64,000 nucleotides of DNA from Chamaelirium japonicum (taxonomy: Eukaryota > Streptophyta > Magnoliopsida > Liliales > Melanthiaceae): contig OX393549.1 of the NCBI GenBank assembly GCA_947650365.1, forward strand, positions 27,681,209 through 27,745,208, read 5' to 3'. A program made the translations under genes and the position numbers. This document shows, in pieces, positions 1 through 64,000 of the stretch. Each line of letters starts with the position of its first letter. Position 1 is the stretch's first letter. The notes under the pieces are model-generated. The model made no database searches. It was not told the origin of the DNA and saw nothing but the letters and a program-made list of their open reading frames with translations.

Positions 1-194
1 CATTCGTATGATCCATTCTAATTCATTCGTATGATCCATTCTAATTCATTTGTACGATCCATTCTAATTCATTCGTACAATCCATTCTATTTCATTCGTA
101 CGATCCATTCTTACTCATTCGTATAATACATTCTAATTCATTCGCACGAATGTATCCATTCTAATTCATTCATACAATCCATTCTAATTCATTC

Positions 195-254
195 CGTACG
201 ATCCATTATAATTCATTCGTACGATCGTATGAATGAATTATAATGGATCGTACG
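195..254. repeat. 60-bp palindrome with one mismatch and matching private variants
   Basis: It is centred on GATC at 223-226. Both arms carry the same uncommon change (CCATTATAATTC on the left, GAATTATAATGG on the right), while the left unit has CGTACG and the right CGTATG. Confidence 0.88.
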
Positions 255-434
255 AATGAATTAGAATAGATTGTGCGACTGAATTAGAATGGATCATACG
301 AATGAATTAGAATGGATCGTACGAATGAATTAGAATGGATCATACGAATGAGTAAGAATGGATCGTACGAATGAATTAGAATGGATCGTACGAATGAATT
401 AGAATGGATCGTACGAATAAATTAGAATGGATAC

Positions 435-907
435 ATTCGTCCGAATGAATTAGAATGGATTATACGAATGAGTAAGAATGGATCGTACGAATGAAATAGA
501 ATAGATTGTACGAATGAATTAGAATGGATCCTACGAATGAATTAGAATGGATCGTGTGAAAGAATTAGAATGGATTGTATGAATGAATTAGAATGGATCG
601 TATGAATGAATTAGAATGGATCGTGCGAATGAATTCGAATGGATCGTACGAATTCATTCTAATTCATTCATACAATCCATTCTAATTCTTTCACACGATC
701 CATTCTAATTCATTCGTACGTTCCATTCTAATTCATTAGCACGATCCATGCTAATTCATTCGTTCGATCAATTCTAATTCATTAGCACGATCCATTCTAA
801 TTCATTCGTACGATCCATTCTAATTCATTCGCACGATCCATTCTAATTCATTCATAGGATCCATTCTAATTCATTCATACGATCTATTCTAATTCTTTCG
901 CACGAAT
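435..907. repeat. Segment duplicated at 48.48-48.93 kb
   Basis: GGATCGTACGAATTC at 641 matches 48664, and CGCACGAATG at 899 matches 48922 (both offset 48,023). Upstream, ATTCGTCCG at 435 matches 48481 (offset 48,046). The difference is exactly 23 bp, one unit missing in the 48 kb copy (the GTGTGAAAG unit). The segment spans an R-to-F junction. Confidence 0.88.
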
Positions 908-2088
908 GTATCCATTCTAATTCATTCGCACGAATGTATCAATTCTAATTCATTCGTACGATCCATTCTAATTCATTCGTACGATCCATTCGAATTCATT
1001 CGCACGATCCATTCTAATTCATTCATATGATCCATTCTAATTCATTCATACAATCCATTCTAATTCTTTCACACGATCCATTCCAATTCATTCGTACGAT
1101 CCATTCTAATTCATTCATACAATCCATTCTATTTTATTCGTACGATCCATTCTTACTCATTCGTATGATCCATACTAATTCATTCGTATGATCCATTCTA
1201 ATTCATTCGTACGATCCATTCTAATTCATTCGTACGATCCATTCTAATTCATTCATACGATCCATTCTAATTCATTCGCACGAATGTATCCATTCTAGTT
1301 CATTCGTACGATCCATTCTAATTCATTCGTACGATCCATTCTAATTCATTCGCACGATCCATTCTAATTCATTCGTACGATCCATTCTAATTCGTTCATA
1401 CAATCCATTCTAATTCATTCGTACGATCCATTCTAATTCATTCGTACAATCTATTCTAATTCATTCGTACGAATGGATACATTCGTGTGAAAGAATTAGA
1501 ATGGATCATGTGAAAGAATTAGAATGGATTGTATGAATGAATTAGAATGGATCGTACGAAGGAATTAGAATGGATCGTACGAATGAATTAGAATGGATCG
1601 TACGAATGAATTAGAATGGATCGTACGAATGAATTAGAATGGATCGTACGAATGAACTAGAATGGATCGTGTGAAAGAATTAGAATGGATCGTACGAATG
1701 AATTAGAATGGATCGTGTGAAAGAATTAGAATGGATTGTATGAATGAATTAGAATGAATTCGTACAATCCATTCGAATTCATTCGCACGATCCATTCTAA
1801 TTCATTCATACGATCCATTCTAATTCATTCATACAATCCATTCTAATTCTTTCACATGATCCATTCTAATTCATTCGTAGGATCCATTCTAATTCATTCG
1901 TACAATCTATTCTATTTCATTCGTACGATCCATTCTTACTCATTCGTATAATCCATTCTAATTCATTCGGACGAATGTATCCATTCTAATTTATTCGTAC
2001 GATCCATTCTAATTCATTCGTACGATCCATTCTAATTCATTCGTACGATCCATTCTAATTCATTCGTCCGATCCATTCTAATTCATTC

Positions 2089-2356: not shown

Positions 2357-4392
2357 GTACGATCCATTCTAATTCATTCGCACGATCCATTCTAATTCAT
2401 TCGTACGATCCATTCTAATTCATTCGCACGATCTGTTCTTATTCATTCGCACAATCCATTCTAATTCATTCGCACGAATGTATCCATTCTAATTCATTCG
2501 TACGATCCATTCTAATTCATTCGTATGATCCATTCTAATTAATTCGTATGATCCATTCTAATTCATTCGTACGATCCATTCTAATTCATTCATACAATCC
2601 ATTCTAATTCATTCGCACGAATGTATCCATTCTAATTAATTCGTACGATCCATTCTAATTCATTCGTATGATCTATTCTTATTCATTCGCACGATCCAGT
2701 CTAATTGATTCGCACGATCCATTCTAATTCATTCGCACGAATGTATCCATTCTAATTCATTCGTACGATCCATTCTAATTCATTAATATGATCCATTCTA
2801 ATTCATATGCACAAAGGTACCCATTCTAATCCATTCGTAGGATCCATTCTAATCCATTCGTACGATCCATTCTAATTCATTCGTACGATCCATTCTAATT
2901 CATTCGCTCGAATGTATCCATTCTAATCCATTCGTACGATCCATTCTAATCCATTCGTACGATCCATTCTAATTCATTCGCATGAATGTAACCATTCTAA
3001 TTCATTCATTTGATCCATTCTAATTCATTCGTACGATCCATTCTAATTCATTCGTCCGAACCATTCTAATTCATTCGCACGAATGTATCCATTCTAATTC
3101 ATTCGTACGATCCATTCTAATTCATTTGTACGATCCATTCTAATTCATTCGTAAGATCCATTCTAATTCATTCGTACGATCCATTCTAATTCATTCGTAC
3201 GATCCATTCTAATTCATTCGCACGAATGTATCCATTCTAGTTTATTCGTACGATCCATTCTTATTCATTCGTACGATCCATTCTAATTCATTCGCACGAT
3301 CCATTCTAATTCTTTCGTACGATCAATTCTAGTTCATTCGCACGAATGTATCCATTCTAATTCATTCGTACGATCCTGAATTAGAATGGATCGTACGAAT
3401 GAGTTAGAATGAATACCTTTGTGCATATGAATTTGAATGGATCGTACAAATGAATTAGAATGGATCATATTAATGAATTAGAATGGATTGTACGAATGAA
3501 TTAGAATGGATACATTCGTGCGAATGAATTAGAATGGATCGTGCACGAATGTATCCATTCTAATTCATTTGTACGATCCATTCTAATTCATTAATATGAT
3601 CCATTCTAATTCATTCGTACGATCCATTCTAATTCATATGCACAAAGGTATCCATTCTAATCCATTCGTAGGATCCATTCTAATCCATTCGTACGATCCA
3701 TTCTAATTCATTCGTACGATCCATTCTAATTCATTCGCTCGAATGTATCCATTTCTAATTCATTCATTTGATCCATTCTAATTCATTCATACGATCCATT
3801 CTAATTCATTCGTCCGATCCATTCTAATTCATTCGCATGAATGTATCCATTCTAATTCATTCGTACGATCCATTCTAATTCATTCGTACGATCCATTCTA
3901 ATTCATTCGTAAGATCCATTCTAATTCATTCGTACGATCCAGTCTAATTCATTCGTACGATCCATTCTAATTCATTCGCACGAATGTATCCATTCTAGTT
4001 CATTCGTACGATCCATTCTAATTCATTCGTACGATCCATTATAATTCATTCGCACGATCCATTCTAATTCATTCGTACGATCCATTCTAATTCATTCACA
4101 CGATCCATTCTAATTCATTCGTACGATCCATTATAATTCATTCGTACGATCTATTCTAATTCATTCGTACGATCCATTCTAATTCATTCGTACGATCCAT
4201 TCTAATTCCTTCGTATGATCCATTCTAATTCATTCATACAATCCATTCTAATTCTTTCACACGATCCATTATAATTCATTCGTAACATCCATTCTAATTC
4301 ATTCGTGCAATCCATTCTATTTCATTCGTACGATCCATTCTTACTCATTCGTACGATCCATTCTAATTCATTCACACGAATGTATCCATTCG

Positions 4393-6768: not shown

Positions 6769-7200
6769 ACGATCCATTCTTACTCATTCGTATGATCCAT
6801 TCTAATTTATTCGCACGAATGTATCCATTCTAATTCATTCGTACATCTAATTCATTCGTACGGTCCATTCTAATTCATTCGCACAATCCATTCTATTTCA
6901 TTCGTACGATCCATTCTTACTCATTCGTATGATCCATTATGGATACATTCGTGCGAATGAATTAGATTGGATCATACGAATGAGTAAGAATGGATCGTAC
7001 GAATGAAATAGAATGGATTGTGCGAATGAATTAGAATGGATCGTACGAATGAATTAGAATGGATCTTGTGAAAGAATTAGAATGGATTGTATGAATGAAT
7101 TAGAATAGATCGTATGTATGAATTAGAATGGATCGTACGAATGAATTAGAATGGATCGTACGAATGAATTAGAATGGATCGTACGAATGAATTAGAATGG
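5890..7200 (-). repeat. First copy of a 1.3-1.4 kb tandem higher-order block
   Basis: The block starts near the marker ATCAAATGAATGAATT (5897) and ends where the same marker reappears (7201). It contains R units with a 171-bp F island at 6769-6939. The island begins GAATGACGATCC and ends GATCCATTATGGATAC; the next copy has the same two junctions. The offset to copy 2 is 1,304 bp in the first part and 1,402 bp at the F island. Copy 2 carries about 98 extra bases near 7655-7750. Confidence 0.85.
6769..6939 (+). repeat. F island inside R domain, copy 1
   Basis: The left junction is GAATGACGATCC and the right junction is the short hairpin ATCCAT-T-ATGGAT. Inside, one unit is shortened (CGTACATCTAATTC), where the second copy reads CGTACGTCTAATTC. 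Both share the CGGTCC variant. These shared oddities identify it with 8171-8340. Confidence 0.85.
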
Positions 7201-8600: not shown

Positions 8601-9640
8601 GGATACATTCGCGAATGAATTAGAATGGATCGTACGAATGAATTAGAATGGATCGTACGAATGAATTAGAATGGATCTTACGAATGAATTAGAATGGATC
8701 GTACGAATGAATTAGAATGGATCGTACGAATGAATTAGAATGGATACATTTGTGCGAATGAATTAGAATGGATCGTACGAATGATTTAGAATGGATCGTA
8801 TGAATGAATTAGAATGGATCGTACGAATGAATTAGAATGGATCGTACGAAGGAATTAGAATGGATCCTACGAATGAATTAGAATGGATATATTCATGCAA
8901 ATGAATTAGAATGGATCGTATGAATGTATTAGAATGGATCGTATGAGTGAATTAGAATGGATCGTGCGAATGAATTAGAATGGATTGTATGAATGAATTA
9001 GAATGGATCGTACGAATGAATTAGAATGGATCATACGAATGAATTAGAATGGATCGTACGAATGAATTAGAATTAGAATGGATATATTCGTGCGAATGAA
9101 TTAGAATGGATACATTCGTGCGAAAGAATTAGAATAGATCGTATGAATGAATTAGAATGGATCCTATGAATGAATTAGAATGGATCGTGCGAATGAATTA
9201 GAATGGATCGTACGAATGAATTAGAATGGATCGTGCTAATGAATTAGAATTGATCGAACGAATGAATTAGCATGGATCGTGCTAATGAATTAGAATGGAA
9301 CGTACGAATGAATTAGAATGGATCGTGTGAAAGAATTAGAATGGATTGTATGAATGAATTAGAATGAATTCGTACGATCTATTCGAATTCATTCGCACGA
9401 TCCTATGAATGAATTAGAATGGATCGTGCGAATGAATTAGAATGGATCGGACGAATAAATTAGAATGGATCGTACGAATGAATTAGAATGGATCAAATAA
9501 ATGAATTAGAATGGTTACATTCATGCGAATGAATTAGAATGGATCGTACGAATGGATTAGAATGGATCGTTCGAATGGATTAGAATGGATACATTCGAGC
9601 GAATGAATTAGAATGGATCGTACGAATGAATTAGAATGAA
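8601..9640 (-). repeat. R domain with a 32-bp F islet
   Basis: R units run 8601-9370 and 9403-9640, with an F islet at 9371-9402 (GAATTCGTACGATCTATTC). The marker TTAGCATGGATCGTGC lies near 9266. The junction AGAATGAATTCGTACGATC occurs twice, at 9370 and 9640. The intervening 270 bp is absent from the related copy at 33.6 kb, so it is an insertion or local duplication in this copy. Confidence 0.85.
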
Positions 9641-10039
9641 TTCGTACGATCCATTCGAATTCATTCGCACGATCCATTCTAATTCATTCAAACGATCCAT
9701 TCTAATTCATTCATACAATCCATTCTAATTCTTTCACACGATTCATTCTAATTCATTCGTAGGATCTATTCTAATTCATTCGTACAATCTATTCTATTTC
9801 ATTCGTACGATCCATTCTTACTCATTCGTATGATCCATTCTAATTCATTCGGACGAATGTATTCATTCTAATTTATTCGTACGATCCATTCTAATTCATT
9901 CGTACGATTCATTCTAATTCATTCGTACGATCCATTCTTACTCATTCGTATGATCCATTCTAATTCATTCGTACGATCCATTCTAATTCATTCGTACGAT
10001 CCATTCTAATTCATTCGCACAATCTATTCTAATTCATTC

Positions 10040-10097
10040 GTACGATCCATTCTAATTCATTCGTACGATCGTACGAATGAATTAGAATGGATCGTAC
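10040..10097. repeat. 58-bp perfect palindrome at an F-to-R switch, orientation B
   Basis: It is centred on GATC at 10067-10070 with 29-nt arms. The one-base-longer unit is on the right (GTACAAAATG; GTACGGAATG in the 34 and 59.9 kb copies). AATCTATT lies on the left, where orientation A has AATAGATT on the right. Confidence 0.9.
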
Positions 10098-10466
10098 AAA
10101 ATGAATTAGAATGGATTGTATGAATGAATTAGAATGGATACATTCGTGCGAATGAATTAGAATGGATCATACGAATGAGTAAGAATGGATCGTACGAATG
10201 AAATAGAATGGATTGTACGAATGAATTAGAATGGATCGTATAAATGAATTAGAATGGATCGTACGAATGAATTAGAATGGATCATACGAATGAGTAAGAA
10301 TGGATCGTACAAATGAAAGAGAATGGATTGTACGAATGAATTAGAATGGATCGTACGAATGAATTAGAATGGATCGTGTGAAAGAATTAGAATGCATTGT
10401 ATGAATGAATTAGAATGGATCATATGAATGAATTAGAATGGATCGTGCGAATGAATTCGAATGGAT

Positions 10467-10486
10467 CGCATGATCCATTCGAATAG
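10467..10486. repeat. Micro-inversion within one unit
   Basis: Inside an R domain, about 13 bp flip to F (CGCATGATCCATTCGAATAG) and return. Copies lie at 20917, 34503 and 60278 in R, and reversed at about 19921 and 22387 in F domains. Confidence 0.85.
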
Positions 10487-11411
10487 AATGGATCGTATGA
10501 ATGAATTAGAATGGATCGAGCGAATGAATTAGAATGGATTGTAGGAATGAATTAGAATAGATCGTATGAATGAATTAGAATGGATCGTATGAATGAATTA
10601 GAATGGATCGTGCGAATGAATTAGAATGGATTGTACGAATGAATTAGAATGGATCGTACGAATGAATTACAATGGATCATACGAATGAATTAGAATGGAT
10701 CATACGAATGAGTAAGAATGGATCGTACGAATGAATTAGAATGGATTGTACGAATGAATTAGAATGGATACATTTGTGCGAATGAATTAGATAGGATCGT
10801 ACGAATGAATTAGAATGGATCGTACGAATGAATTAGAATGCATCGTACGAAAGAATTAGAATGGATATATTCGTGCGAATGAATTAGAATGGATCGTACG
10901 AAAGAATTAGACTGGATCGTACGAATAAATTTGAATGGATACATTTGTGCGAATGAATCTAAATGGATTGTATGAATGAATTACAATGGATCGTACAAAT
11001 GAATTAGAATGGATCGTACGAATGAATTAGAATAGCTCATAATAATAAATTAGAATGAATCGTATGAATGAATTAGAATGGTTACATTCGTGCTAATGAA
11101 TTAGAATAGATCATACGTATGAATTAGAATGGATCGTACGAATAAATTAGAATGGATCGTGGGAATGAATTAGAATGGATCGTACGAATGAATTAGAATG
11201 GATCCACCGAATTAGTTAGAATGGATCATACGAATGAATTAGAATGGATTGTACGAATGAATTAGAATGGATTGTGCGAATGAATTAGAATTGATCGTAT
11301 AAATGAATAAGAATGGATCGTACGAATGAATTAGAATGGATCGTGCGAATGAATTAGCATGAATCGTACGAATGTATTAGAATGGATCGTATGAATGAAT
11401 TAGAATGAATC

Positions 11412-13140
11412 GTACGATCCATTCTAATTCATTCGTACGATCCATTCTAATTCATTCGCACGAATGTATCCACTCTAGTTCATTCGTACGATCCATTCTA
11501 GTTCATTCGTACGATCCATTCTAATTCATTCGTATGATCCATTCTAATTCATTCGTATGATCCATTCTAATTAATTCGTATGATCCATTCTAATTCATTC
11601 GTACGGTCCATTCTAATTCATTCATACAATCCATTCTAATTCATTCGCACAAATGTATCCATTCTAATTAATTCGTACGATCCATTCTAATTCATTCGTA
11701 TGATCCATTGTTATTCATTCGCACGATCCAGTCTAATGGATTCGCACGATCCATTCTAATTCATTCGCACGAATGTATCCATTCTAATGCATCGTACGAT
11801 CCATTCTAATTCATTAATATGATCCATTCTAATTCATTCGCACGATCCATTCTAATTCATTCGTACGATCCATTCTAATTCATTCGTACGATCCATTCTA
11901 ATTCATTCGCACGATCCATTCTAATTCATTCTTACAATCTATTCTATTTCATTCGTACGATCCATTCTTACTCATTCGTATGATCCATTCTAATTCATTC
12001 GGACGAATATATCCATTCTAATTTATTCGTACGATCTATTCTAATTCATTCGTACGATCCATTCTAATTCATTCGTACGATCCATTCTAATTCATTCGTC
12101 CGATCCATTCTAATTCATTCGCACGAATGTATCCATTCTAATTCATTCGTACGGTCCATTCTAATTCATTCGTACAATCCATTCTATTTCATTCGTACGA
12201 TCCATTCTTACTCATTCGTATGATCCATTATGGATACATTCGTGCGAATGAATTAGAATGGATCATACGAATGAGTAAGAATGGATCGTACGAATGAAAT
12301 AGAATGGATTGTGCGAATGAATTAGAATGGATCGTACGAATGAATTAGAATGGATCGTGTGAAAGAATTAGAATGGATTGTATGAATGAATTAGAATAGA
12401 TCGTATAAATGAATTAGAATGGATCGTACAAATGAATTAGAATGGATCGTATGAATGAACTTGGATGGATACATTCGTGCGAATGAATTAGAATGGATCG
12501 TACGAATGAATTAGAATGGATCGTACGAATGAATTAGAATGGATCTTACGAATGAATTAGAATGGATCGTACAAATGCACGATCCATGCTAATTCATTCG
12601 TTCGATCAATTCTAATTCATTAGCACGATCCATTCTAATTCATTCGTACGATCCATTCTAATTCATTCGCACGATCCATTGTAATTCATTCGTACGATCC
12701 ATTCTAATTCTTTCACACGATCCATTCTAATTCATTCGTACGATCCATTCTAATTCATTCGCACGATCTATTCTAATTCATTCGTACGATCCATTCTAAT
12801 TTCATTCGTACGATCCATTCTAATTCATTCGCTCGAAAGTATCCATTCGTACGATCCATTCTAATCCATTCGTACGATCCATTCTAATTCATTCGCATGA
12901 ATGTAACCATTCTAATCCATTCATTTGATCCATTCTAATTCATTCGTACGATCCATTCTAATTCATTCGCATGAATGTATCCATTCTAATCCATTCGTAA
13001 GATCCATTCTAATTCATTCGTATGATCCATTCTAATTCATTCGTACGATCCATTCAATTCTAATTCATTCGTACGATCCATTCTAATTCATATGCACAAA
13101 GGTATCCATTCTAATTCGTTCGTACGATCCATTCTAATTC
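11412..13140. repeat. F-R-F trio, copy 1
   Basis: F runs 11412-12230, R 12231-12577 and F 12578-13140. It contains the variant CCAGTCTAATGGATTCGCAC (about 11726), the CCATTATGG junction, the AATGCACGATCCATGC junction, an extra-T unit (CTAATTTCATTCG, 12798) and ATGCACAAAGGTA (13092). The same order appears at 35442-37107 and 39660-41069. Confidence 0.85.
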
Positions 13141-32856: not shown

Positions 32857-33676
32857 ACCAATGAATTAGAATAGATTGTACGAATAAATTAGAATGGATC
32901 GTACGAATGAATTAGAATGGATCGTATGAATGAATTAGAATGGATCGTATGAATGAATTAGAATGGATCGTGCGAATGAATTAGAATGGATCGTACGAAT
33001 GAATTAGAATGGATCGTACGAATGAACTAGAATAGATACATTCGTACAAATGAATTAGAATGGATCGTACGAATGAATTAGAATGGATCGTACGAATGAA
33101 TTAGAATGGATCGTACGAATGAATTAGAATGGATCATACGAATGAATTAGAATGGATCATAAGAATGAGTAAGAATGGATCGTACGAATGAAATAGAATG
33201 GATTGTACGAATGAATTAGAATGGATCGTACGAATGAATAAGAATGGATCGTGTGAAAGAATTAGAATGGATTGTATGAATGAATTAGAATGGATCATAT
33301 GAATGAATTAGAATGGATCGTGCGAATGAATTCGAATGGATCGTACAAATGAATTAGAATGGATCGTACGAATGAATTAGAATGGATACATTCGTGCGAA
33401 TAAATTAGAATGGATACATTCGTGCGAAAGAATTAGAATAGATCGTATGAATGAATTAGAATGGATCCTATGAATGAATTAGAATGGATCGTGCGAATGA
33501 ATTAGAATAGATCGTACGAATAAATTAGAATGGATCGTGCTAATGAATTAGAATTGATCGAACGAATGAATTAGCATGGATCGTGCTAATGAATTAGAAT
33601 GGAACGTACGAATGAATTAGAATGGATCGTGTGAAAGAATTAGAATGGATTGTATGAATGAATTAGAATGAATTCG
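32857..33676 (-). repeat. R domain, 0.8 kb
   Basis: It is entered by CACACGAATGTATCCATTCG followed by TACCAATG (a one-base variant of the usual TACGAATG). The right half carries GTGCTAATG and TTAGCATGG (33537-33580), as at 9233 and 59336. Confidence 0.85.
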
Positions 33677-35441
33677 TATGATCCATTCGAATTTATTCGC
33701 ACGATCCATTCTAATTCATTCATACGATCCATTCTAATTCATTCATACAATCCATTCTAATTCTTTCACATGATCCATTCTAATTCATTCGTAGGATCCA
33801 TTCTAATTCATTCGTACAATCTATTCTATTTCATTCGTACGATCCATTCTTACACATTCGTATGATCCATTCTAATTTATTCGAACGAATGTATCCATTC
33901 TAATTTATTCGTACGATCCATTCTAATTCATTCGTACAATCCATTCTAATTCATTCGTACGATCCATTCTTACTCATTCGTATGATCCATTCTAATTCAT
34001 TCGTACGATCCATTCTAATTCATTCGTACGATCCATTCTAATTCATTCGCACAATCTATTGTAATTCATTCGTACGATCCATTCTAATTCATTCGTACGA
34101 TCGTACGAATGAATTAGAATGGATCGTACGGAATGAATTAGAATGGATTGTATGAATGAATTAGAATGGATACATTCGTGCGAATGAATTAGAATGGATC
34201 ATACGAATAAGTAAGAATGGATCGTACGAATGAAATAGAATGGATTGTACGAATGAATTAGAATGGATCGTACAAATGAATTAGAATGGATCGTACGAAT
34301 GAATAAGAATGTATCATACGAATGAGTAAGAATGGATCGTACAAATGAAATAGAATGGATTGTACGAATGAATTAGAATGGATCGTACGAATGTATTAGA
34401 ATGGATCGTCTGAAAGAATTAGAATGCATTGTATGAATGAATTAGAATGGATCGTATGAATGAATTAGAATGGATCGTGCGAATGAATTCGAATGGATCG
34501 CATGATCCATTCGAATAGAATGGATCGTATGAATGAATTAGAATGGATCGGGCGAATGAATTAGAATGGATCGTATGAATGAATTAGAATGGTTCGTATG
34601 AATGAATTAGAATGGATCGTGCGAATGAATTAGAATGGATCGTACGAATGAATTAGAATGGATCGTACAAATGAATTAGAATGGATCCTACGAATGAATT
34701 AGAATGGATCATACGAATGAGTAAAATGGATCGTACGAATGAAATAGAATGGATTGTACGAATGAATTAGAATGGATACATTCGTGCGAATGAATTAGAA
34801 TGGATCGTACGAATGAATTAGAATGGATCGTACGAATGAATTAGAATGGATCATACGAATGAATTAGAATGCATCGTACGAAAGAATTAGAATGGATATA
34901 TTCGTGCGAATGAATTAGAATGGATCATACGAATGAATTAGACTGGATTGTACGAATGAATTTGAATGGATACATTTGTGCGAATGAATCTAAATGGATT
35001 GTATGAATGAATTACAATGGATCGTACGAATGAATTAGAATGGATCGTACGAATGAATTAGAATAGCTAATACGAATGAATTAGAATGAATCGTATGAAT
35101 GAATTAGAATGGTTACATTCGTGCGAATAAATTAGAATAGATCGTACGAATGAATTAGAATGGATCGTACGAATAAATTAGAATGGATCGTGGGAATGAA
35201 TTAGAATGGATCGTACGAATGAATTAGAATGGATCCATCGAATGAGTTAGAATGGATCATACGAATGAATTAAAATGGATTGTACGAATGAATTAGAATG
35301 GATTGTGCGAATGAATTCGAATGGATCGTATGAATGAATAAGAATGGATCGTACGAATGAATTAGAATGGATCGTGCAAATGAATTAGCATGAATCGTAC
35401 GAATGTATTAGAATGGATCGTACGAATGAATTAGAATGAAT
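33677..35441. repeat. Inverted-pair unit, copy at 33.7-35.4 kb
   Basis: F runs 33677-34100 and R 34101-35441. Anchors are the micro-inversion TGATCCATTCGAATAG (34503), GATCCATCG (35232, here CATCG where the other copies have CACCG) and GCATGAATCG (35388). Order and spacing match 9641-11411 closely, with an R-to-F exit junction of the same type (GAATTGTACGATCC here). Confidence 0.85.
34071..34130. repeat. 60-bp perfect palindrome, orientation B
   Basis: The centre is between 34100 and 34101, with 30-nt arms. The right flank reads GTACGGAATG. It is the 24-kb partner of the palindrome at 10040; a further, less perfect copy is at about 59877. Confidence 0.9.
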
Positions 35442-37107
35442 TGTACGATCCATTCTAATTCATTCGTACGATCCATTCTAATTTATTCGCACGAATGTAT
35501 CCATTCTAGTTCATTCGTACGATCCATTCTAGTTCATTCGTACGATCCATTCTAATTCATTCGTACGATCCATTCTAATTAATTCGTATGATCCATTCTT
35601 ATTAATTCGTATGATCCATTCTAATTCATTCGTACGATCCATTCTAATTCTTTCATACAATCCATTCTAATTCATTTGCAAGAATGTATCCATTCTAATT
35701 AATTCGTACGATCCATTCTAATTCATTCGTATGATCCAGTCTTATTCATTCGCACGAGCCAGTCTAATGGATTCGCACGATCCATTCTAATTCATTCGCA
35801 TGAATGTATCCATTCTAATTCATTCGTACGATCCATTCTAATTCATTAATATGATCCATTCTAATTCATTTGCACGATCCATTCTAATTCATTTGTACGA
35901 TCCATTCTAATTCATTCGTACGATCCATTCTAATTCATTCGCAAGAATCCATTCTAATTCATTCGTACAATCTATTCTGTTTCATTTGTACGATCCGTTC
36001 TTACTCATTCGTATGATCCATTCTAATTCATTCGGACGAATATATCCATTCTAATTTATTCGTACGATCCATTCTAATTCATTCGTACGATCCATTCTAA
36101 TTCATTCGTACGATCCATTCTAATTCATTCGTCCGATCCATTCTAATTCATTCGCACGAATATATCCATTCTAATTCATTCGTACGGTCCATTCTAATTC
36201 ATTCGCACAATCCATTCTATTTCATTCGTACGATCCATTCTTACTCATTCGTATGATCCATTATGGATACATTCGTGTGAATGAATAAGAATGGATCATT
36301 AATGAGTAAGAATGGATCGTACGAATGAAATAGAATGGATTGTGCGAATGAATTAGAATGGATCGTACGAATGAATTAGAATGGATCGTGTGAAATAATT
36401 AGAATGGATTGTATGAATGAATTAGAATAGATCGTATTAATGAATTAGAATGGATCGTACGAATGAATTAGAATGGATCGTACGAATGAACTATAATGGA
36501 TACATTCGTGCGAATGAATTAGAATGGATCGTACGAATGCACGATCAATGCTAATTCATTCGTTCGATCAATTCTAATTCATTAGCAGGATCCATTCTAA
36601 TTCATTCGTACGATCCATTCTAATTCATTCGCACAATCCATTCTAATTCATTCGTACGATCCATTCTAATTCTTTCACACGATGCATTCTAATTCATTCG
36701 TACGATCCATTCTAATTCATCCGTACGATCTATTCTAATTCATTCGTACGATCCATTCTAATTTCATTCGTACGATCCATTCTAATTCATTCGCTCGAAT
36801 GTATCCATTCTAATCCATTCGTACGATCCATTCTAATCCATTCGTACGATCCATTCTAATTCATTCGCATGAATGTAACCATTCTAATTCATTCATTTGA
36901 TCCATTCTAATTCATTCGTACGATCCATTCTAATTCATTCGTCCGATCCATTCTAATTCATTCGCACGAATGTATCCATTCTAATCCATTCGTACGATCC
37001 ATTCTAATTCATTAATATGATCTATTCTAATTCATTCGTACGATCCATTCTAATTCATATGCACAAAGGTATCCATTCTAATTCATTCGAACGATCCATT
37101 CTAATTC
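35442..37107. repeat. F-R-F trio, copy 2
   Basis: F runs 35442-36263, R 36264-36539 and F 36540-37107. The distinguishing variants of copy 1 are all present in the same order; here the second junction reads AATGCACGATCAATGC. It exits by the junction TAATTCAGGATTGTAC at 37108, the same type as at 13140. Confidence 0.85.
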
Positions 37108-44604: not shown

Positions 44605-44638
44605 GAATTAGAATGGATCGTACGATCCAATCTAATTC
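44605..44638. repeat. One-unit inverted islet, copy 2
   Basis: The same islet sequence as at 41981 lies between CCATGCTAAT and CCAATCTAATTC. GTATATTCC lies about 40 bp upstream, as in the other copies. Confidence 0.85.
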
Positions 44639-48671: not shown

Positions 48672-51087
48672 CGAATTCATTCTAATTCATTCATACAATC
48701 CATTCTAATTCTTTCACACGATCCATTCTAATTCATTCGTACGTTCCATTCTAATTCATTAGCACGATCCATACTAATTCATTCGTTCGATCAATTCTAA
48801 TTCATTAGCACGATCCATTCTAATTCATTCGTACGATCCATTCTAATTCATTCGCACGATCCATTCTAATTCATTCATAGGACCCATTCTAATTCATTCA
48901 TACGATCTATTCTAATTCTTTCGCACGAATGTATCCATTCTAATTCATTCGTACGATCCATTCTAATTCATTCGTATGATCTATTCTAATTCATTCGTAC
49001 GATCCATTCTAATTCATTCATACGATCTATTCTAATTCATTCATACAATCCATTCTAATTCTTTCACATGATCCATTCTAATTCATTCGTACGATCCATT
49101 CTAATTCATTTGCACAATCCATTCTATTTCATTCGTACGATCCATTCTTACTCATTGGTACGATCCATTCTAATTCATTCGCACGAATGTATCCATTCTA
49201 ATTCATTCGTACGAATCCATTCTAATTTATTCGTACAATCCATTCTATTTCATTCGTACGATCCATTCTTACTCATTCGTATGATCCATTCTAATTCATT
49301 CGCACGAATGTATCCATTCTAAATCATTCGTACGATCCATTCTAAATCATTCGTACGATCCATTCTAAATCATTCGTACAATACATTCTATTTCATTCGT
49401 ACGATCAATTCTAATTCATTAGCACGATCCATTCTAATTCATTCGTACGATCCATTCAAATTCATTCGCACGATCCGTTCTAATTCATTCGTACATTCCA
49501 TTCTATATCATTCGTACGATCCATTCTTACTCATTCATATGATCCATTCTAATTCATTCGCACGAATGTATCCATTCTAATCCATTCGTACGAATGAATT
49601 AGAATGGATCGTACGAATAAATTAGAATGGATACATTCGTCCGAATGAATTAGAATGGATCATACGAATGAGTAAGAATGGATCGTACGAATGAAATAGA
49701 ATAGATTGTACGAATGAATTAGAATGGATCCTACGAATGAATTATAATAGATCGTGTGAAAGAATTAGAATGGATTGTATGAATGAATTAGAATGAATTC
49801 GTACGATCCATTCGAATTCATTCGCACGATCCATTCTAATTCATTCATACAATCCATTCTAATTCTTTCACACGATCCATTCAAATTCATTCGTAGGTTC
49901 CATTCTAATTCATTCGTACAATCTATTCTATTTCATTCGTACGATCCATTCTTACTCATTCGTATGATCCATTCTAATTCATTCGTACGAATGTATCCAT
50001 TCTAATTTATTCGTACGATCCATTCTAATTCATTCGTACAATCCATTCTAATTTATTCGTACGATCCATTCTAATTCATTTGTCCGATCCATTCTAATTC
50101 ATTCGTACGAATATATCCATTCTAATTCATTCGTACGATCCATTCTGATTCATTCGTACGATCCATTCTAATTCATTCGTAAGATCCATTCTAATTCATT
50201 CAAACGATCCATTCTAATTCATTCGTACGATCCATTCTAATTCATTCGCACGAATGTATCCATTCTAGTTCATTTGTATGATCCATTCTAATTCATTCGT
50301 ACGATCCATTCTAATTCATTTGCACGATCCATTCTAATTCATTAGTACGATCCATTCTAATTCATTCATACGATCCATTCTAATTCATTCGTACGATCCA
50401 TTCTAATTCATTCACACAAATGTATCCATTCTAATTCATTCGTACGATCCATTCTAATTCATTCGCATGATCCATTCTAATTCATTCGTACGAACCATTC
50501 TAATTCTTTCACACGATCCATTCTAATTCATTCGTACGATCCATTCTAATTCATTCGCACGATCCATTCTAATTCATTCGTACGATCCATTCTAATTCAT
50601 TCATACGATCCATTCTAATTCATTCGTACGATCCATTCTAATTCATTCGCACAAATGTATCCATTCTAATTCATTCGTACGATCCATTCTAATTCATTCG
50701 CACGATCCATTCTAATTCATTCGTACGATCCATTCTAATTCATTCGTACGATCCATTCTAATTAATTCGTATGATCCATTCTAATTCATTCGTACGATCC
50801 ATTCTAATTCATTCATAGAATCCATTCTAATTCATTCGCACGAATGTATCCATTCTAATTAATTCGTACGATCCATTCTAATTAATTCGTATGAGCTATT
50901 CTTATTCATTCACACGATCCAGTCTAATTGATTCGCACGATCCATTCTAATTCATTCACACGAATGTATCCATTTGAATTCATTCGTACGATCCATTCCA
51001 ATTCATTAATATGATCCATTCTAATTCATTCGTACGATCCATTCTAATTCATATGCACAAAGGTATCCATTTTAATTCATTCGCACG
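48672..51087 (+). repeat. F domain, 2.4 kb, with one R island
   Basis: F runs 48672-49591 and 49801-51087, and R 49592-49800. The left part up to about 48930 matches 650-907 at a constant offset of 48,023. Chance frames of 84 and 70 codons (49068-49322, 49793-50005) lie here because runs of CTTACTC and CTATTTC variants remove the usual TAA. Confidence 0.85.
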
Positions 51088-54000
51088 AAAGAATTAGAAT
51101 GGATTGTATGAAAGAATAGATCGTATGAATGAATTAGAATGGATCGTACGGAATGAATTAGAATGGATTGTATGAATGAATTAGAATGGATCGTACGAAT
51201 GAGTAAGAATGGATCGTATGAATGAATTAGAATGGATCATACGAATGAATTAGAATGGATCGTACGAATAAATTAGAATGGATCATACGAATGAAATAGA
51301 ATGGATCGTACGAAGGAATTAGAATGGATCATACGAAGGAATTAGAATGGATCGTACGAAGGAATTAGAATGGATCGTACGAATGAATTAGAATGATTAT
51401 ATTCGTGCAAATGAATTAGAATGGATCGTATGAATGAATTAGAATGGATCGTATGAGTGAATTAGAACGGTTAGTACGAATGAAGTAGAATGGATCGTAT
51501 GAATGAATTAGAATGGATACATTCGTGTGAATGAATTAGAATGGATCGTATGAATGAATTAGAATGGATCGTATGAATGAATTAGAATGGATCGTGCGAA
51601 TGAATTAGAATGGATCGTACGAATGAATTAGAATGGATCGTACGAATGAACTAGAATGGATAAATTCGTGCGAATGAATTAGAATGGATCATACGAATGA
51701 ATTAGAATGGATCGTACGAATGAATTAGAATGGATCTTACGAATGAATTAGAATGGATCGTACGAATGAATTAGAATGGATCGTACGAATGAATTAGAAT
51801 GGATACATTCGTGTGAATGAATTAGAATGGATCGGACGAATGAATTAGAATGGATCGTACGAATGAATTAGAATGGATCAAATGAATGAATTAGAATGGA
51901 TCGTACGAATAAATTAGAATGGATACATTAGTCCGAATGAATTAGAATGGATCGTACGAATGAATTAGAATGGATCGTACGAATGAATTAGAATGGATCG
52001 TACGAATGAATTAGAATGGATACATTCGTACGAATGAATTATAATGGATCGTACGAATGAATTAGAATGGATCGTACGGAATGAATTAGAATGGATATAT
52101 TTGAACGAATAAATTAGAATGGATCATACGAATGAATTAGAATGGATCGTACGAATGAATTAGAATGGATAGTGCGAATGAATTAGAATCGATCGTACGA
52201 ATGAATTAGAATCGATCGTACGAATGAATTAGAATGGATCATACGAATGAGTAAGAATGGATCGTACGAATGAATTAGAATGGATCGTACGAATGAATTA
52301 GAATGGATCGTACGAATAAATTAGAATGGATACATTCGTCCGAATGAATTAGAATGGATCATACGAATGAGTAAGAATGGATCGTACGAATGAAATAGAA
52401 TAGATTGTACGAATGAATTAGAATGGATCCTATGAATGAATTAGAATGGATCGTGTGAAAGAATTAGAATGGATTGTATGAATGAATTAGACTGGATCGT
52501 ATGAATGAATTAGAATGGATCGTACGAATGGATTAGAATGGATCGTACGAATGAATTAGAATGGATCGTACGAATGAACTAGAATGGATACATTCGTGCG
52601 AATGAATTAGAATGGATCGTACGAATGAATTAGAATGGATCGTACGAATGAATTAGAATGGATCTTACGAATGAATTAGAATGGATCGTACGAATGAATT
52701 AGAATGGATCGTACGAATGAATTAGAATAGATCGTACGAATGAATTAGAATGGATCGTTCGAAGGAATTAGAATGGTTCGTACGAATGAATTAGAATGGA
52801 TCGTATGAATGAATTAGAATGGATACATTCGTGCGAATGAATTAGAATGGATTGTACGAATGAATTAGAATGGATCGTACGAATGAATTAGAATGGTTCG
52901 TGTGAAAGAATTAGAATGGATTGTATGAATGAATTAGAATGGATCATATGAATGAATTAGAATGGATAAATTCGTGCGAATGAATTAGAATGGATCGTAC
53001 GAATGAATTAGAATGGATCGTACGAATGAATTAGAATGGATCGTACGAATGAATTAGAATGGATCGTATGAATGAATTAGAATGGTTACATTCATGCGAA
53101 TGGATTAGAATGGATCGTACGAATGGATTAGAATGGATCGTACGAATGGATTAGAATGGATACATTCGAGCGAATGAATTAGAATGGATCGTACGAATGA
53201 ATTAGAATGGATCGTACGAATGGATTAGAATGGATCCTACGAATGGATTAGAATGGATACCTTTGTGCATATGAATTAGAATGGATCGTACGAATGAATT
53301 AGAATGGATCATATGAATGAATTAGAATGGATCGTGTGAAAGAATTAGAATGGATTGTAGGAATGAATTAGAATAGATCGTATGAATGAATTAGAATGGA
53401 TCGTACGAATGAATTAGAATGGATCGTACGACTGAATTAGAATGGATCGTACGAATGAATTAGAATGGATACATTCGTGCGAATGAATTAGAAATGATAC
53501 ATTCGCGCAAAAGAATTAGAATAGATCGTATGAATGAATTAGAATGGATCCTATGAATGAATTAGAATGGATCGTGCGAATGAATTAGAATTGATCGTAC
53601 GAATGAATTAGAATGGATCGTGCTAATGAATTAGAATTGATTGAACGAATGAATTAGCATGGATCATGCTAATGAATTAGAATGGATCGTGCGAATGAAT
53701 TAGAATGGATCGTACGAATGAATTAGAATGGATAATGCGAATGAATTAGAATGGATCGTACGAATTAATTAGAATGGATTCGTACGAATGAATTAGAATG
53801 GATACATTCGTGCGAATGAATTAGAATGGATCGTACCAATGAGTAAGAATGGATCGTACGAATGAAATAGAATGGATCGTAAGAATGAATCGTATGAATT
53901 AGAATGGATCGTATGAATGGATTAGAATGGATCGTACGAATGGATTAGAATCGATACATTCGAGCGAATGAATTAGAATGGATTGTACGGAATGAATTAG

Positions 54001-54916
54001 AATGGATTGTATGAATAAATTAGAATGGATCGTACGAATTAATTAGAATGGATACATTCATGCGAATGAATTAGAATGGATTGTATGAATGAATTAGAAT
54101 GGATCGTACGAATGAATTAGAATGGATCATACGAATTAATTAGAATGGATCATACGAATGAATTAGAATGCATCGTACGAATGAATTAGAAGGGATCATA
54201 CGAATGAATTAGAACGGATCGTACGAATAAATTAGAATGGATACATTCGTCCGAATGAATTAGAATGGATCATACGAATGAGTAAAAATGGATCGTACGA
54301 ATGAAATAGAATGGATTGTACGAATGATTTAGAATGGATCGTACGAATGAATTAGAATGGATCGTACGAATGATTTAGAATGGATACATTCGTGCGAATG
54401 AATTAGAATGGATCATACGAATGAGTAAGAATGGATCGTGCGAACGAAATAGAATGGATTGTACGAATGAATTAGAATGGATTCGTACGAATGAATTAGA
54501 ATTGATACATTCGTGCGAATGAATTAGAATGGATCGTACCAATGAGTAAGAATGGATCGTACGAATGAAATAGAATGGATTGTGCGAATGAATTAGAATG
54601 GATCGTAAGAATGAATTAGAATGGATCATACGAATTAGGTAGAATGGATCGTACGAATGAATTAGAATGGATCGTACGAATGAATTAGAATGGATCATAC
54701 GAATTAATTAGAATGGATCGTACGAATGAATTAGAATGGTTCGTACGAATGAATTAGAATGGATCGTACGAATGAATTAGAATGGATACATTTGTGAGAA
54801 TGAATTAGAATGGATCGTACGAATGGATTAGAATGGATCGTACGAATGGATTAGAATGGATACATTCGTGCGAATGAATTAGAATGGATTGCATGAATGA
54901 ATTAGAATGGATCGTA
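51088..54916 (-). repeat. Longest single-orientation domain, R, 3.8 kb
   Basis: No orientation switch was seen between 51088 and 54916. Entry (CATTCGCACGAAAGAATTAG) was seen once. Markers are ATCAAATGAATG (51877), TACCTTTGTGCAT (53257) and TTAGCATGGATCATGC (about 53653). A chance complementary-strand frame of 107 codons lies at 54375-54698. Confidence 0.88.
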
Positions 54917-54926
54917 CGATCCATTC
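54905..54926. repeat. 22-bp perfect palindrome at an R-to-F switch
   Basis: GAATGGATCG, TA, CGATCCATTC reads the same on both strands. The R unit abuts an F unit at their shared CGTACG. The next flanking bases no longer match. Confidence 0.9.
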
Positions 54927-59473: not shown

Positions 59474-61334
59474 GTACGATCCATTCGAATTCATTCGCAC
59501 GATCCATTCTAATTCATTCATACGATCCATTCTAATTCATTCATACAATCCATTCTAATTCTTTCACACGATCCATTCTAATTCATTCGTACAATCTATT
59601 CTATTTCATTCGTACGATCCATTCTTACTCATTCGTATGATCCATTCTAATTCATTCGGACGAATGTATCCATTCTAATTTATTCGTACGATCCATTCTA
59701 ATTCATTCGTACGATCCATTCTAATTCATTCGTACGATCCATTTTTACTCATTCGTATGATCCATTCTAATTCATTCGTACGATCCATTCTAATTCGTTC
59801 GTACGATCCATTCTAATTCATTCGCACAATCTATTCTAATTCATTCGTACGATCCATTCTAATTCATTCGTACAATCGTACGAATGAATTAGAATGGATC
59901 GTACGGAATGAATTAGAATGGATTGTATGAATGAATTAGAATGGATACATTCGTGCGAATGAATTAGAATAGATCATACGAATGAGTAAGAATGCATCGT
60001 ACGAATGAAATAGAATGGATTGTACGAATAAATTAGAATGGATCGTACAAATGAATTAGAATGGATCGTACGAATGAATTAGAATGGATCATACGAATGA
60101 GTAAGAATGGATCGTACAAATGAAATAGAATGGATTGTACGAATGAATTAGAATGGATCGTACGAATGAATTAGAATGGATCGTGTGAAAGAATTAGAAT
60201 ACATTGTATGAATGAATTAGAATGGATCGTATGAATGAATTAGAATGGATCGTCCGAATGAATTCGAATGGATCGCATGATCCATTCGAATAGAATGGAT
60301 CGTATGAATGAATTAGAATGGATCGGGCGAATAAATTAGAATGGATTGTAAGAATGAATTAGAATGGATCGTATGAATGAATTAGAATGGATCGTATGAA
60401 TGAATTAGAATGGATCGTGCGAATGAATTAGAATGGATCGTACGAATGAATTAGAATGGATCGTACGAATGAATTAGAATGGATCATACGAATGAATTAG
60501 AATGGATCGTACGAATGAGTAAGAATGGATCGTACGAATGAAATAGAATGGATTGTACGAATGAATTAGAATGGATACATTCATGCGAATGAATTAAAAT
60601 GGATCGGACGATTGAATTAGAATGGATCGTACGATTCATTCTAATTCATTCGTACGATCCATTCTTATACATTCGTACGATTCATGCTAATTCATTCGCA
60701 CGATCCATTCAAATTCATTCGTACGATCTATTCTTATTCATTCATACGATCCATTCTAATTCATTCGTACAATCCATTCTAATTCATTCATACAATCCAT
60801 TCTAATTCATTCGTATGATCCATTCTAACTCATTCGGTGGATCCATTCTAATTCATTCGTATGATCCATTCTAATTCATTCCCATGATCCATTCTAATTT
60901 ATTCGTACGATCCATTCTATTTCATTCGTACGATCTATTCTAATTCATTCGCACGAATGTAACCATTATAATTCATTCATACGATTCATTCTAATTCATT
61001 CGTATGAGCTATTCTAATTCATTCGTACGATCCATTCTAATTCATTCGTACGATCCATTGTAATTCATTCATACAATCCATTTAGATTCATTCGCACAAA
61101 TGTATCCATTCCAATTCATTCGTACGATCCAGTCTAATTCATTCGTACGATCCATTCTAATTCCTTCGTACGATCCATTCTAATTCATTCATACGATCTA
61201 TTCTAATTCATTCGTACGATCCATTCTAATTCATTCGTACGATCCATTCTAATTCCTTCGTACGATCCATTCTAATTTATTCGTACGATCCATTCTAATT
61301 CATTCGTACAATCTATTCTAATTCATTCGTACGA
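59474..61334. repeat. Inverted pair related to 9.6-11.4 kb, then F
   Basis: F runs 59474-59877, R 59878-60631 and F 60632-61334. The first two blocks copy 33677-34860 (micro-inversion at 60278). The copy then stops and jumps to the F form of the GGTGGATCC segment, so this unit is a recombinant between two known blocks. Confidence 0.82.
60632..61090 (+). repeat. GGTGGATCC-marked segment, F copy 3
   Basis: GATTCATGC is at 60679 and CGGTGGATCC at 60835. The entry junction GATCGTACGATTCATTC is the same as at 29466. It is followed by GAGCTATTC and CCATTGTAATTC as in copy 2. Confidence 0.85.
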
Positions 61335-62482
61335 ATGGATACATTCGTGTGAATGAATTAGAATGGATCGTACGAATGAGTAAGAATTGATCGTACGAAT
61401 AAAATAGAATGGATTGCACGAATGAATTAGAATGGATCGTACGAATGAATTAGAATGGATCGTGTGAAAGAATTAGAATGGATTGTATGAATGAATTAGA
61501 ATGGATCGTACGAATGAATTAGAATGGATCGTACGAAGGAATTAGAATGGATCGTACGAATGAATTAGAATGGATCGTACGAAGGAATTAGAATGGATCA
61601 TACGAATGAAATAGAATGGATCGTACGAATAAATTAGAATGGATACATTCGTCCGAATGAATTAGAATGGATCATACGAATGAGTAAGAATGGATCGTAC
61701 GAATGAAATAGCATAGATCGTATGAGTGATTTAGAATGGATTGTATGAATGAATTAGAATGGATCGTATGAATGAATTAGAATGGATCGTGCGAATGAAT
61801 TCGAATGGACCGTACGAATTCATTCTAATTCATTCATACAATCCATTCTAATTCTTTCACACGATCTATTCTAATTCATTCGTAGGATCCATTCTAATTC
61901 ATTGGTATAATCCATTCTATTTCATTTGTACGATCCATTCTTACTCATTCGTATGATCCATTCTAATTCATTCGTACGATCCATTCTAATTCATTTGTAC
62001 GATCCATTCTAATTTATTCGCACGAATGTATCTATTCTAATTCATTCGTACGATCCATTCTAATTCATTCGCACAATCTATTCTAATTCATTCATACGAT
62101 CCATTCTAATTCATTCGCACAAATGTATCCATTCTAATTCATTCATACGATCCATTCTACTTCATTCGTACTATCCGTTCTAATTCACTCATACGATTCA
62201 TTCTAATTCATTCATACGATCCATTCTAATTCATTCTAATTCATTCATACAATCTATTCTATTTCATTCGTACGATCCATTCTTACTCATTCGTATGACC
62301 CATTCTAATTCATTCGGACGAATGTATCCATTCTAATTTATTCGTACGATCCATTCTAATTCATTCGTACGATCCATTCTTACTCATTCGTACGATCCAT
62401 TCTAATTCCTTCGTACGATCCATTCTAATTCATTCGCACGATCCATTCTAATTCTTTCATATAATCCATTCTAATTCTTTCG
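61335..62482. repeat. R then F block
   Basis: R runs 61335-61815 and F 61816-62482. Entry CATTCGTACGAATGGATAC is shared with 1468, 16346 and 43823; the R-to-F switch CCGTACGAATTC is a variant of the 650-type. The exit TTCTTTCGTGCGAATG at about 62482 was seen once. Confidence 0.82.
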
Positions 62483-64000
62483 TGCGAATGAATTAGAATG
62501 GATACCTTTGTGCATATGAATTAGAATGGATCGTACGAATGAATTAGAATGGATCATATTAATGAATTAGAATGGATCGTACGAATGAATTAGAATGGAT
62601 ACATTCGTGCGAATGAATTAGAATGGATCGTGCGAATCAATTAGACTGGATCGTGCGAATGAATAAGAATAGATCATACGAATGAATTAGAATGGATCGT
62701 ACGAATTAATTAGAATGGATACATTAGTGCGAATGAATTAGAATGGATTGTATGAATGAATTAGAATGGATCGTACGAATGAATTAGAATGGATCATACG
62801 AATTAATTAGAATGGATCATACGAATGAATTAGAATGGATCGTACGAATGAATTAGAATGGATCGTACGAATGAATTAGAATGGATCGTGCGAATGAATT
62901 AGAATGGATCGAACGAATGAATTAGAATGGATACATTTGTGCGAATGAATTAGAATGGATCGTACGAATGAATTAGAATGGATCGTATGAATGAATTAGA
63001 ATGGATCGTACGAACGAATTAGAATGGATCGTGCGAATGAATTAGAATGGATCGTACGAATGAATTAGAATGGATCGTGTGAAAGAATTAGAATGGATCG
63101 TACGAATGAATTAGAATGGATCGTGCGAATGAATTAGAATGGATCGTATGAATGAATTAGAATAGATTTTGTGAATGAATTAGAACTGATCGTACGAATG
63201 AATTAGAATGGATCGTACGAATGAATTAGAATGGATACATTTGTGCGAATGAATTAGAATGGATCGTACGAATGAATTAGAATGGATCATATGAATGAAT
63301 TAGAATGGATACATTTGTGCGAACGAATTAGAATGGATCGTGCGAATCCATTAGACTGGATCGTGCGAATGAATAAGAATGGATCATACGAATGAATTAG
63401 AATGGATCGTACGAATTAATTAGAATGGATACATTCGTGCGAATGAATTAGAATGGATTGTATGAATGAATTAGAATGGATCGTACGAATGAATTAGAAT
63501 GGATCATACGAATTAATTAGAATGGATCAGACGAATGGACTAGAATGGATCGTACGAATGAATTAGAATGGATCGTACGAATGAACTAGAATGGATCGTA
63601 CGAATGAAATAGAATAGATTGTACGAATGAATTAGAATGAATTCGTACGAATGAATTAGAATGGATACATTCGTGCGAATGAATTAGAATGGATACATTC
63701 GTGCGAAAGAATTAGAATAGATCGTATGAATGAATTAGAATGGATCCTATGAATGAATTAGAATGGATCGTGCGAATGAATTAGAATGGATCGTACGAAT
63801 GAATTAGAATGGATCGTGCTAATGAATTAGAATTGATCGAACGAATGAATTGGCATGGATCGTGCTAATGAATTAGAATGGATCGTACGAATGAATTAGA
63901 ATGGATCGTACGAATGGATTAGAATGGATCGTATGAATGGATTAGAATGGATACATTCGAGCGAATGAATTAGAATGGATCATACGGAATGAATTAGAAT
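62483..64000 (-). repeat. R domain to the window edge, with a 710-bp tandem duplication
   Basis: TTAGACTGG at 62641 matches 63351, and TAGAATGGATACATT at 62711 matches 63421, both offset 710. GTGCTAATG near 63817 and GGCATGGATCG follow. The array continues past 64000. Confidence 0.85.

What the first reader, a model, noticed from the sequence alone, without database searches (positions are those of the whole stretch)
1..64000. Satellite with about 85 orientation switches in 64 kb
Head-to-tail order is the norm for tandem satellites. Here F and R blocks alternate from 22 bp to 3.8 kb with no gene or transposon at the borders. That implies inversion is a routine part of how this array changes, or that the locus replicates or repairs by template switching. 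The count was made by eye from the switch between CTAATTCATTC and GAATGAATTAG.
Basis: seen in the sequence. Interest (0 to 1): 0.8.

Follow-up and report, generated by a model that had tools for sequence, protein, structure and literature searches.

The report
Plant satellite with copied strand switches
This stretch of a probably plant genome is one 23-base repeat whose strand flips about eighty times, and most of those flips look like copies of a limited set of old ones found thousands of times across the genome, not eighty separate inversions.

Summary
All 64 kb is one 23-bp satellite. A two-strand profile scan finds 85 switches, or 79 at a stricter penalty (range 71-101). One-strand controls give 0 at the stricter penalty. 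Blocks reach 3,826 bp; blocks under about 36 bp are not robust.

"Inversion is routine" is only partly supported, because most switches are copies. In 144 kb from five places on four contigs, 161 junctions form 48 clusters, and eight clusters hold 108. Exact 41-45 bp junction sequences occur 11,053, 7,313 and 2,800 times genome-wide, near 50:50 in strand. Copies of a junction share a median 352 bp around it; inverted copies are as numerous and as similar as direct ones (427 of 851). Two 6-kb stretches 15,019 bp apart are 99.7% identical and carry the same six switches.

Best explanation: a limited set of founding strand joins spread with a roughly 200-Mb satellite by in-register homologous exchange that largely ignores strand. 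The nearest precedent is Tribolium macro-dyad satellites; differences are the probable plant host, denser switching, more junction kinds, and no extra conservation at junctions. Raw reads could not be checked.

The parts
1..64000 (.). 23-bp satellite in alternating strand blocks; 79 switches at penalty 1e-8, 85 at 1e-5
   Evidence: flanking 10-kb loci L015 and L016 are also 100% satellite
653..654 (.). R-to-F junction, class 0; window copies begin at 654, 1758, 17434, 18448, 29957, 31055, 33672, 37917, 38444, 48677, 49797, 59470, 61820 (both orientations)
   Evidence: 28 copies in the 161-junction sample; an exact 45-bp form occurs 5,502 forward and 5,551 reverse in the genome
1470..1471 (.). 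F-to-R junction, class 1; window copies at 1471, 4392, 13594, 16347, 25344, 27931, 43821, 45966, 61333
   Evidence: 23 copies in the sample; an exact 42-bp form 3,604 forward and 3,709 reverse
3376..3377 (.). F-to-R junction, class 2; window copies at 3377, 13142, 32258, 37109, 47063
   Evidence: 13 copies in the sample
3551..3552 (.). R-to-F junction, class 3; window copies at 3552, 24196, 32083, 46888
   Evidence: 12 copies in the sample; an exact 41-bp form 1,410 forward and 1,390 reverse
6938..6939 (.). F-to-R junction, class 4; window copies at 6939, 8341, 12230, 30374, 36263, 40207
   Evidence: 11 copies in the sample; genome count not obtained
222..223 (.). F-to-R junction, class 5, centred on the palindrome GATC; window copies at 223, 10067, 18040, 20330, 34099, 59878
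   Evidence: 9 copies in the sample; strand overlap at the join 4 bp in most copies
9526..12508 (+). Segment with four switches, direct copy of 33563-36539
   Evidence: 2,990-bp alignment at 95.5% identity
33563..36539 (+). Copy of 9526-12508
1..1507 (+). Segment with three switches, inverted copy of 32818-34324
   Evidence: 1,507-bp alignment at 97.3% identity
32818..34324 (-). Inverted copy of 1-1507
51086..54911 (-). Longest one-strand block, 3,826 bp in R orientation
9368..9403 (+). Shortest block kept at penalty 1e-8, 36 bp in F orientation

Best explanation
A 23-bp satellite of roughly 200 Mb in a 1.52-Gb, probably plant, genome carries a limited stock of strand-switch junctions. Shown: about ten kinds of join make up most sampled switches; copies of a kind have inherited flanks; they lie in different arrays and contigs, in both orientations; and they travel inside larger duplicated segments. 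Inferred: a limited set of illegitimate strand joins arose early, some at the 8-10 bp palindrome inside each unit. Afterwards the arrays were rearranged mainly by homologous, in-register exchange: unequal crossing-over, gene conversion or break-induced copying, flips between inverted blocks, perhaps circle reinsertion. Once both strands are present, any unit can pair with any other whichever strand it lies on, so existing junctions are copied and flipped without a new join being made. Switch density then drifts as a passenger trait.
For: 161 junctions form 48 clusters; eight clusters (28, 23, 13, 12, 11, 9, 6, 6) hold 108, each in several loci. Ten join phases hold 139 of 161; same-phase junctions share flanks in 72% of 1,191 pairs, other same-type pairs in 0.23% of 5,209. 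Shared flanks: median 352 bp in total over 851 pairs, against side medians of 5 and 22 bp for 793 random in-register pairs. Genome counts 5,502/5,551, 3,604/3,709, 1,410/1,390 forward/reverse with 0 for reversed controls. Inverted pairs 427 of 851 with the same shared length as direct ones, p=0.94; nearest partner inverted in 52 of 112. 4,529 of 4,655 unit intervals are in register and 47 are off by more than 1 bp. Two stretches 15,019 bp apart match at 5,984 of 6,000 bases with identical seven blocks. Six of seven junctions in two further contigs match a known class within 10 edits per 120.
Against: Clusters were defined by similarity within 60 bp of the join, so only the extent beyond 60 bp is independent. 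Ordinary array windows also have close relatives (nearest-neighbour median 6 edits per 120 against 2 for junctions). Strand mixing is incomplete: on C1 17.1-18.4 Mb 20 of 24 class-3 copies point one way and on 27.4-29.3 Mb 13 of 41; class-0 neighbours agree in 60 of 99 (p=0.044); best tile hits are 244 direct, 185 inverted. Some locality exists: nearest partner in the same array in 63 of 112, and local excess in L016, L021, L026. 31 of 161 junctions are singletons, so new joins may still arise. The exchange steps themselves are inferred.
Confidence: 0.7

Rival explanations
1. One reading: inversion or template switching happens continually and each of the 79-85 switches is a separate event.
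For: 31 of 161 sampled junctions are singletons. Joins show more strand overlap than random joins (mean 2.1 bp per class against 0.33), with 8 bp in 7 of 48 classes. Two palindrome-centred join phases are each split over five clusters, as repeated formation would give.
Against: 108 of 161 junctions fall in eight clusters with inherited flanks; one exact 45-bp junction occurs 11,053 times; own arms are not more alike than foreign arms.
Confidence: 0.15
2. Assembly or read artefact: fold-back reads or a short-word graph walk made the switches.
For: Raw reads were not available. Satellites are hard to assemble, and the unplaced contigs are many.
Against: Fold-back reads give near-perfect arms; the lowest own-arm distance is 7 edits per 150 over 157 junctions. 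77% of 101-mers of the window are unique within 134 kb, so the sequence is not a walk over a short-word graph. The same junctions occur in placed chromosomes and unplaced contigs.
Confidence: 0.06
3. The switches are kept by selection: inverted blocks form hairpins or double-stranded RNA that serve heterochromatin or centromeres, as proposed for Tribolium.
For: A similar layout with conserved inversion sites in beetles (PMC13081366). The units contain an 8-10 bp palindrome.
Against: Junction cores are no better conserved than flanks: mismatch 0.0299 at 0-20 bp, 0.0303 at 20-150 bp, over 320 non-independent pairs. Block lengths mostly vary and switch density differs between loci.
Confidence: 0.1
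4. The copied segments are mobile modules, satellite-based foldback elements, inserting in either orientation.
For: Copies lie in both orientations and far apart. A 307-bp satellite piece with a switch lies between stretches of retrotransposon-like DNA (L025 1727-2033).
Against: Similarity runs through the junction on both sides, so junctions are internal, not module ends. Register is kept in most intervals. Most neighbour pairings vary in spacing, although a few are fixed, such as 175 and 348 bp. Segment ends and target-site duplications were not searched for.
Confidence: 0.04

Closest known systems
Tribolium madens TmSat1/TmSat2 macro-dyad satellite arrays (PMC13081366; abstract, section 7 part 2, section 10 and found passages read)
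   Same: An abundant satellite with strand changes inside arrays; inversion sites of conserved sequence in thousands of copies (2,044, 3,486 and 6,428 reported, 98% or more alike); little contig-specific clustering; exchange between chromosomes proposed.
   Different: There: monomers built on a unit of about 110 bp, two intermingled satellites, mostly two subarrays of several kb, three inversion-site kinds, confirmed in HiFi reads. Here: 23-bp unit, one satellite in the window, blocks of about 0.6 kb median in long series, about ten common and many rare kinds, probable plant host, no reads.
Cuscuta europaea CUS-TR24 (PMC8091179; passages read)
   Same: A plant satellite seen in both orientations in nanopore reads; inversions and segmental duplications proposed.
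   Different: Neighbouring arrays mostly in the same orientation (40-45% same, 10-15% opposite in the 1-10 kb neighbourhood); broken up by LINEs and simple repeats.
Pea CEN6 FabTR-10 (PMC10027222; passages read)
   Same: A plant satellite in large arrays with no preferred orientation over the centromere.
   Different: Orientation uniform within each array except one; [quoted passage not shown]
Human alpha satellite higher-order arrays (PMC9859433; passages read)
   Same: Tandem satellite with copied higher-order segments.
   Different: The review says few inversions occur within the higher-order units and orientation is typically maintained. Frequent inversions in other human satellites are recalled, not read; that report was not held.

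Membership tests
Tribolium-type macro-dyad satellite arrays | Strand changes within continuous satellite arrays | tested here: met
   79-85 switches in 64 kb, 0 background bases
Tribolium-type macro-dyad satellite arrays | Inversion sites of conserved sequence in many copies genome-wide | tested here: met
   11,053, 7,313 and 2,800 exact copies of three junctions
Tribolium-type macro-dyad satellite arrays | Mostly two long subarrays of several kb forming one large dyad | tested here: not met
   80 successive blocks in 64 kb, median 636.5 bp
Tribolium-type macro-dyad satellite arrays | Two intermingled satellites, major and minor | tested here: not met
   One satellite explains the whole window
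Tribolium-type macro-dyad satellite arrays | No clustering of copies by contig | tested here: inconclusive
   Different-array pairs share as much as same-array pairs, but nearest partners lie in the same array in 63 of 112 and three loci show local excess
Tribolium-type macro-dyad satellite arrays | Layout confirmed in raw long reads | not testable with these tools
   No reads available
Classical head-to-tail satellite DNA | Tandem units in register | tested here: met
   4,529 of 4,655 intervals in register
Classical head-to-tail satellite DNA | Uniform orientation within an array | tested here: not met
Higher-order repeat array with one superunit carrying all switches | Same order and spacing of switches in every unit | tested here: inconclusive
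   Face pairs of neighbouring junctions recur above chance (108 v 55.2; same length 32 v 2.4) and a 15,019-bp tandem copy exists, but many spacings vary

The most novel reading that the evidence does not exclude
The satellite arrays of this genome behave as one recombining pool in which strand carries almost no memory. Homologous exchange copies segments between arrays and chromosomes in either orientation, so inversion junctions become neutral markers whose copy number, shared flank length and orientation measure the exchange. Conserved inversion sites, read elsewhere as functional, would then be expected without any function.
Probability: 0.4. Interest if true: 0.65.

Novelty: new variant of a known kind. 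Interest (0 to 1): 0.52.

Why it matters
Conserved inversion sites in satellite arrays have been proposed to be functional in beetles. A probable plant with denser switching, many junction kinds, near 50:50 orientation and no extra conservation at the junctions suggests that they can be passengers of strand-indifferent exchange. Each junction is a rare, countable marker, so exchange between satellite arrays on different chromosomes becomes measurable.

Tried and rejected
Considered and set aside: a gene or known RNA in the window (no ORF of 150 aa or more; no Rfam match); a prokaryotic, phage or plasmid source (no matches, and the genome is 1.52 Gb); fold-back artefact; short-word assembly walk; transposon modules. 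Convergent re-formation at one palindrome was set aside as the general cause but kept for a minority.

A methylation-type mutation signature in the unit profile is not clean: changes at CG positions are frequent at some sites (G to A 19% at the first CG) but low at another (C to T 4.5%) and high at a non-CG site (12.7%). My first density figure used non-overlapping counts (133 in the window); overlapping counts give 150 and about 203 Mb. The place lists show forward hits only, although reverse hits exist, so they were not used for strand. The lists agree with both strands of my loci.

Not obtained: genome counts of the class-4 junction and of a perfect fold-back junction, and a plastid-gene search. 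The machine did not answer.
Full report
Observation. It is entirely a satellite of 23-bp units with 28-bp variants. A two-strand profile scan gives 85 switches at penalties 1e-5 and 1e-6, 79 at 1e-8, and 71-101 over the range tried. One-strand controls give 0 at 1e-8; the re-oriented window gives 6 at 1e-5.

Scale. An exact 33-mer of the unit occurs 242,956 times forward and 242,191 reverse in the genome. At 2.39 per kb in 144 kb of pure array (window plus nine loci, L009 left out) this gives about 203 Mb, roughly 13% of the assembly. That is a rough figure that assumes equal density. On C1, exact class-3 junctions mark arrays near 1.4-3.2, 10.4-10.6, 17.1-18.4 and 27.4-29.3 Mb, where the list is cut. 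Of the first 20 stretches fetched, several of them placed beside known hits and so not a random sample, seven are wholly satellite, one is 84% and one holds a 307-bp piece. Of three more, two are wholly satellite and one has none. Each satellite stretch fetched contains strand switches.

The switches are copies. I took the window plus eight loci (L009, L010, L015, L016, L017, L021, L026, L027) and kept the 161 switches at least 60 bp from a locus end. Single linkage at 10 edits or fewer per 120 bp, in either orientation, gives 48 clusters. Those with 28, 23, 13, 12, 11, 9, 6 and 6 members hold 108, each in several loci; 31 clusters are singletons. In the window, 60 of 79 junctions have at least one other copy in the sample and 50 of 79 belong to a cluster also seen outside this array. 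Some singletons are false, because a very short neighbouring block falls inside the compared stretch (for example 9368 and 9404). With 200-bp windows, the 79 window junctions form 29 clusters at 20 edits. The 161 use 30 join phases, and ten phases hold 139. Junctions of the same phase share flanks in 72% of 1,191 pairs; other same-type pairs in 0.23% of 5,209. Ordinary in-register windows of the array also have close relatives (nearest-neighbour median 6 edits per 120, against 2 for junctions; 51% against 78% at 6 or fewer), so the whole array is copied and junctions go along with it. In two further contigs, 6 of 7 junctions match a known class within 10 edits.

Extent of copying. For 851 same-cluster pairs not cut by a locus end, high identity extends a median 352 bp in total around the switch. 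For 793 random in-register pairs the medians of the shorter and longer side are 5 and 22 bp. The first 60 bp on each side is partly given by how clusters were made; the rest is not. The two sides are uncorrelated in the two largest classes (r=0.01 each) and range from -0.08 to 0.46 in the other seven. Larger copied units exist: 2,990 bp with four switches in direct copy, 1,507 bp with three switches in inverted copy, and two 6-kb stretches 15,019 bp apart on C1 with 5,984 of 6,000 bases identical, no gaps, and the same seven blocks. Face pairs of neighbouring junctions recur (108 coincidences against 55.2 permuted) and keep their length (32 against 2.4), with no permutation of 2,000 reaching either value.

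Strand. Three exact junction sequences occur 5,502/5,551, 3,604/3,709 and 1,410/1,390 times forward/reverse, with no match to the reversed control patterns. In the sample 427 of 851 pairs are inverted, with the same shared length as direct pairs (p=0.94), and the nearest partner is inverted in 52 of 112. Mixing is not complete. Among the first 100 listed class-3 places on C1 the forward counts per array are 17 of 30, 5 of 5, 20 of 24 (p=0.0015) and 13 of 41 (p=0.03); among the first 100 class-0 places, 52 are forward and neighbours agree in 60 of 99 (p=0.044). Best tile hits are 244 direct to 185 inverted of 429.

Place. Pairs in different arrays share as much as pairs in the same array (356-357 against 335-341 bp), while nearest partners lie in the same array in 63 of 112, more than the share of such pairs (386 of 901) would suggest. 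Tile comparisons over 13 ten-kb pieces show no locality except in L016, L021 and L026. Local tandem growth is therefore also at work, as the 15,019-bp copy shows.

How joins arose. Over 48 classes the overlap between the two strands' consensus at the join is 0 in 23 and 8 bp in 7. Over all 529 possible joins of the consensus it is 0 in 305 and 8 in 9. The 8-bp cases sit on the unit's own palindrome. Two palindrome-centred phases (12 and 9 junctions) are each split over five clusters, so some joins may have formed repeatedly. Own arms are no more alike than foreign arms (157 junctions, median 21 against 21 edits per 150, lowest 7). This argues strongly against fold-back reads and gives no sign of recent fold-back formation. 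Junction cores show the same mismatch rate as flanks, 0.0299 against 0.0303 over 320 pairs that are not independent, so selection on the junction is not visible.

Mechanism. Register is kept in 4,529 of 4,655 intervals, with 47 off by more than 1 bp, so exchange is mostly homologous. In an array with both strands, homologous pairing between inverted blocks flips or copies what lies between and makes no new join. That explains few junction kinds, both orientations and variable block lengths together. Which of crossing-over, conversion, break-induced copying or circle reinsertion dominates is not decided, and these steps are inferred.

Host. L025 holds reverse transcriptase, RNase H and integrase zinc-binding domains in what I read, from memory, as a plant-type Ty3 element. 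59 of the 100 cox1 matches listed score 506 bits with no stop under the standard code, which fits plant mitochondria. The species was not identified and 'plant' is an inference; a plastid-gene search did not complete.

Literature. Ten searches of the library were made. The closest work is on Tribolium madens, whose authors state that macro-dyad symmetries of satellite arrays have been documented only in Tribolium (PMC13081366). In the listings of those searches, and in the passages I read of four other papers, I saw no plant with this density of switches; the library lacks most subscription papers.

Noticed in passing
L025 1727-2033 (C12:1001726-1002032): A 307-bp satellite piece with one R-to-F switch lies between retrotransposon-like stretches, which are partly inverted copies of each other (845 bp at 80%). 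Its junction is 24 edits per 120 from the nearest sampled junction, so it may be an old copy.
   Followed up: partly
L009 2819-4013 (C1:1365818-1367012): A 1,195-bp non-satellite insert inside an array. It looks like a solo LTR by eye; no database search was made.
   Followed up: partly
C1:2862000-2883018 (L038, L039): Local tandem duplication with a 15,019-bp period, 99.73% identical over 6 kb, inside the array at 2.5-2.9 Mb; listed junction places there also repeat at offsets such as 65,268 and 164,182 bp.
   Followed up: yes
window, 28-bp unit variants: About one interval in eight between unit anchors is 28 bp (595 against 3,272 of 23 bp in 142 kb); the variant holds CATTCGCACGAATG, itself a short near-palindrome.
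   Followed up: partly
G000, small contigs C514 to C3216: 59 contigs carry a full cox1 at the same score (59 of the 100 matches listed), so mitochondrial DNA seems to have been assembled many times over.
   Followed up: no
G000 contigs C16-C20: Contigs from C16 on are about 3 Mb or less, while C12 is 69.9 Mb, so there are between 12 and 15 chromosome-size contigs.
   Followed up: no
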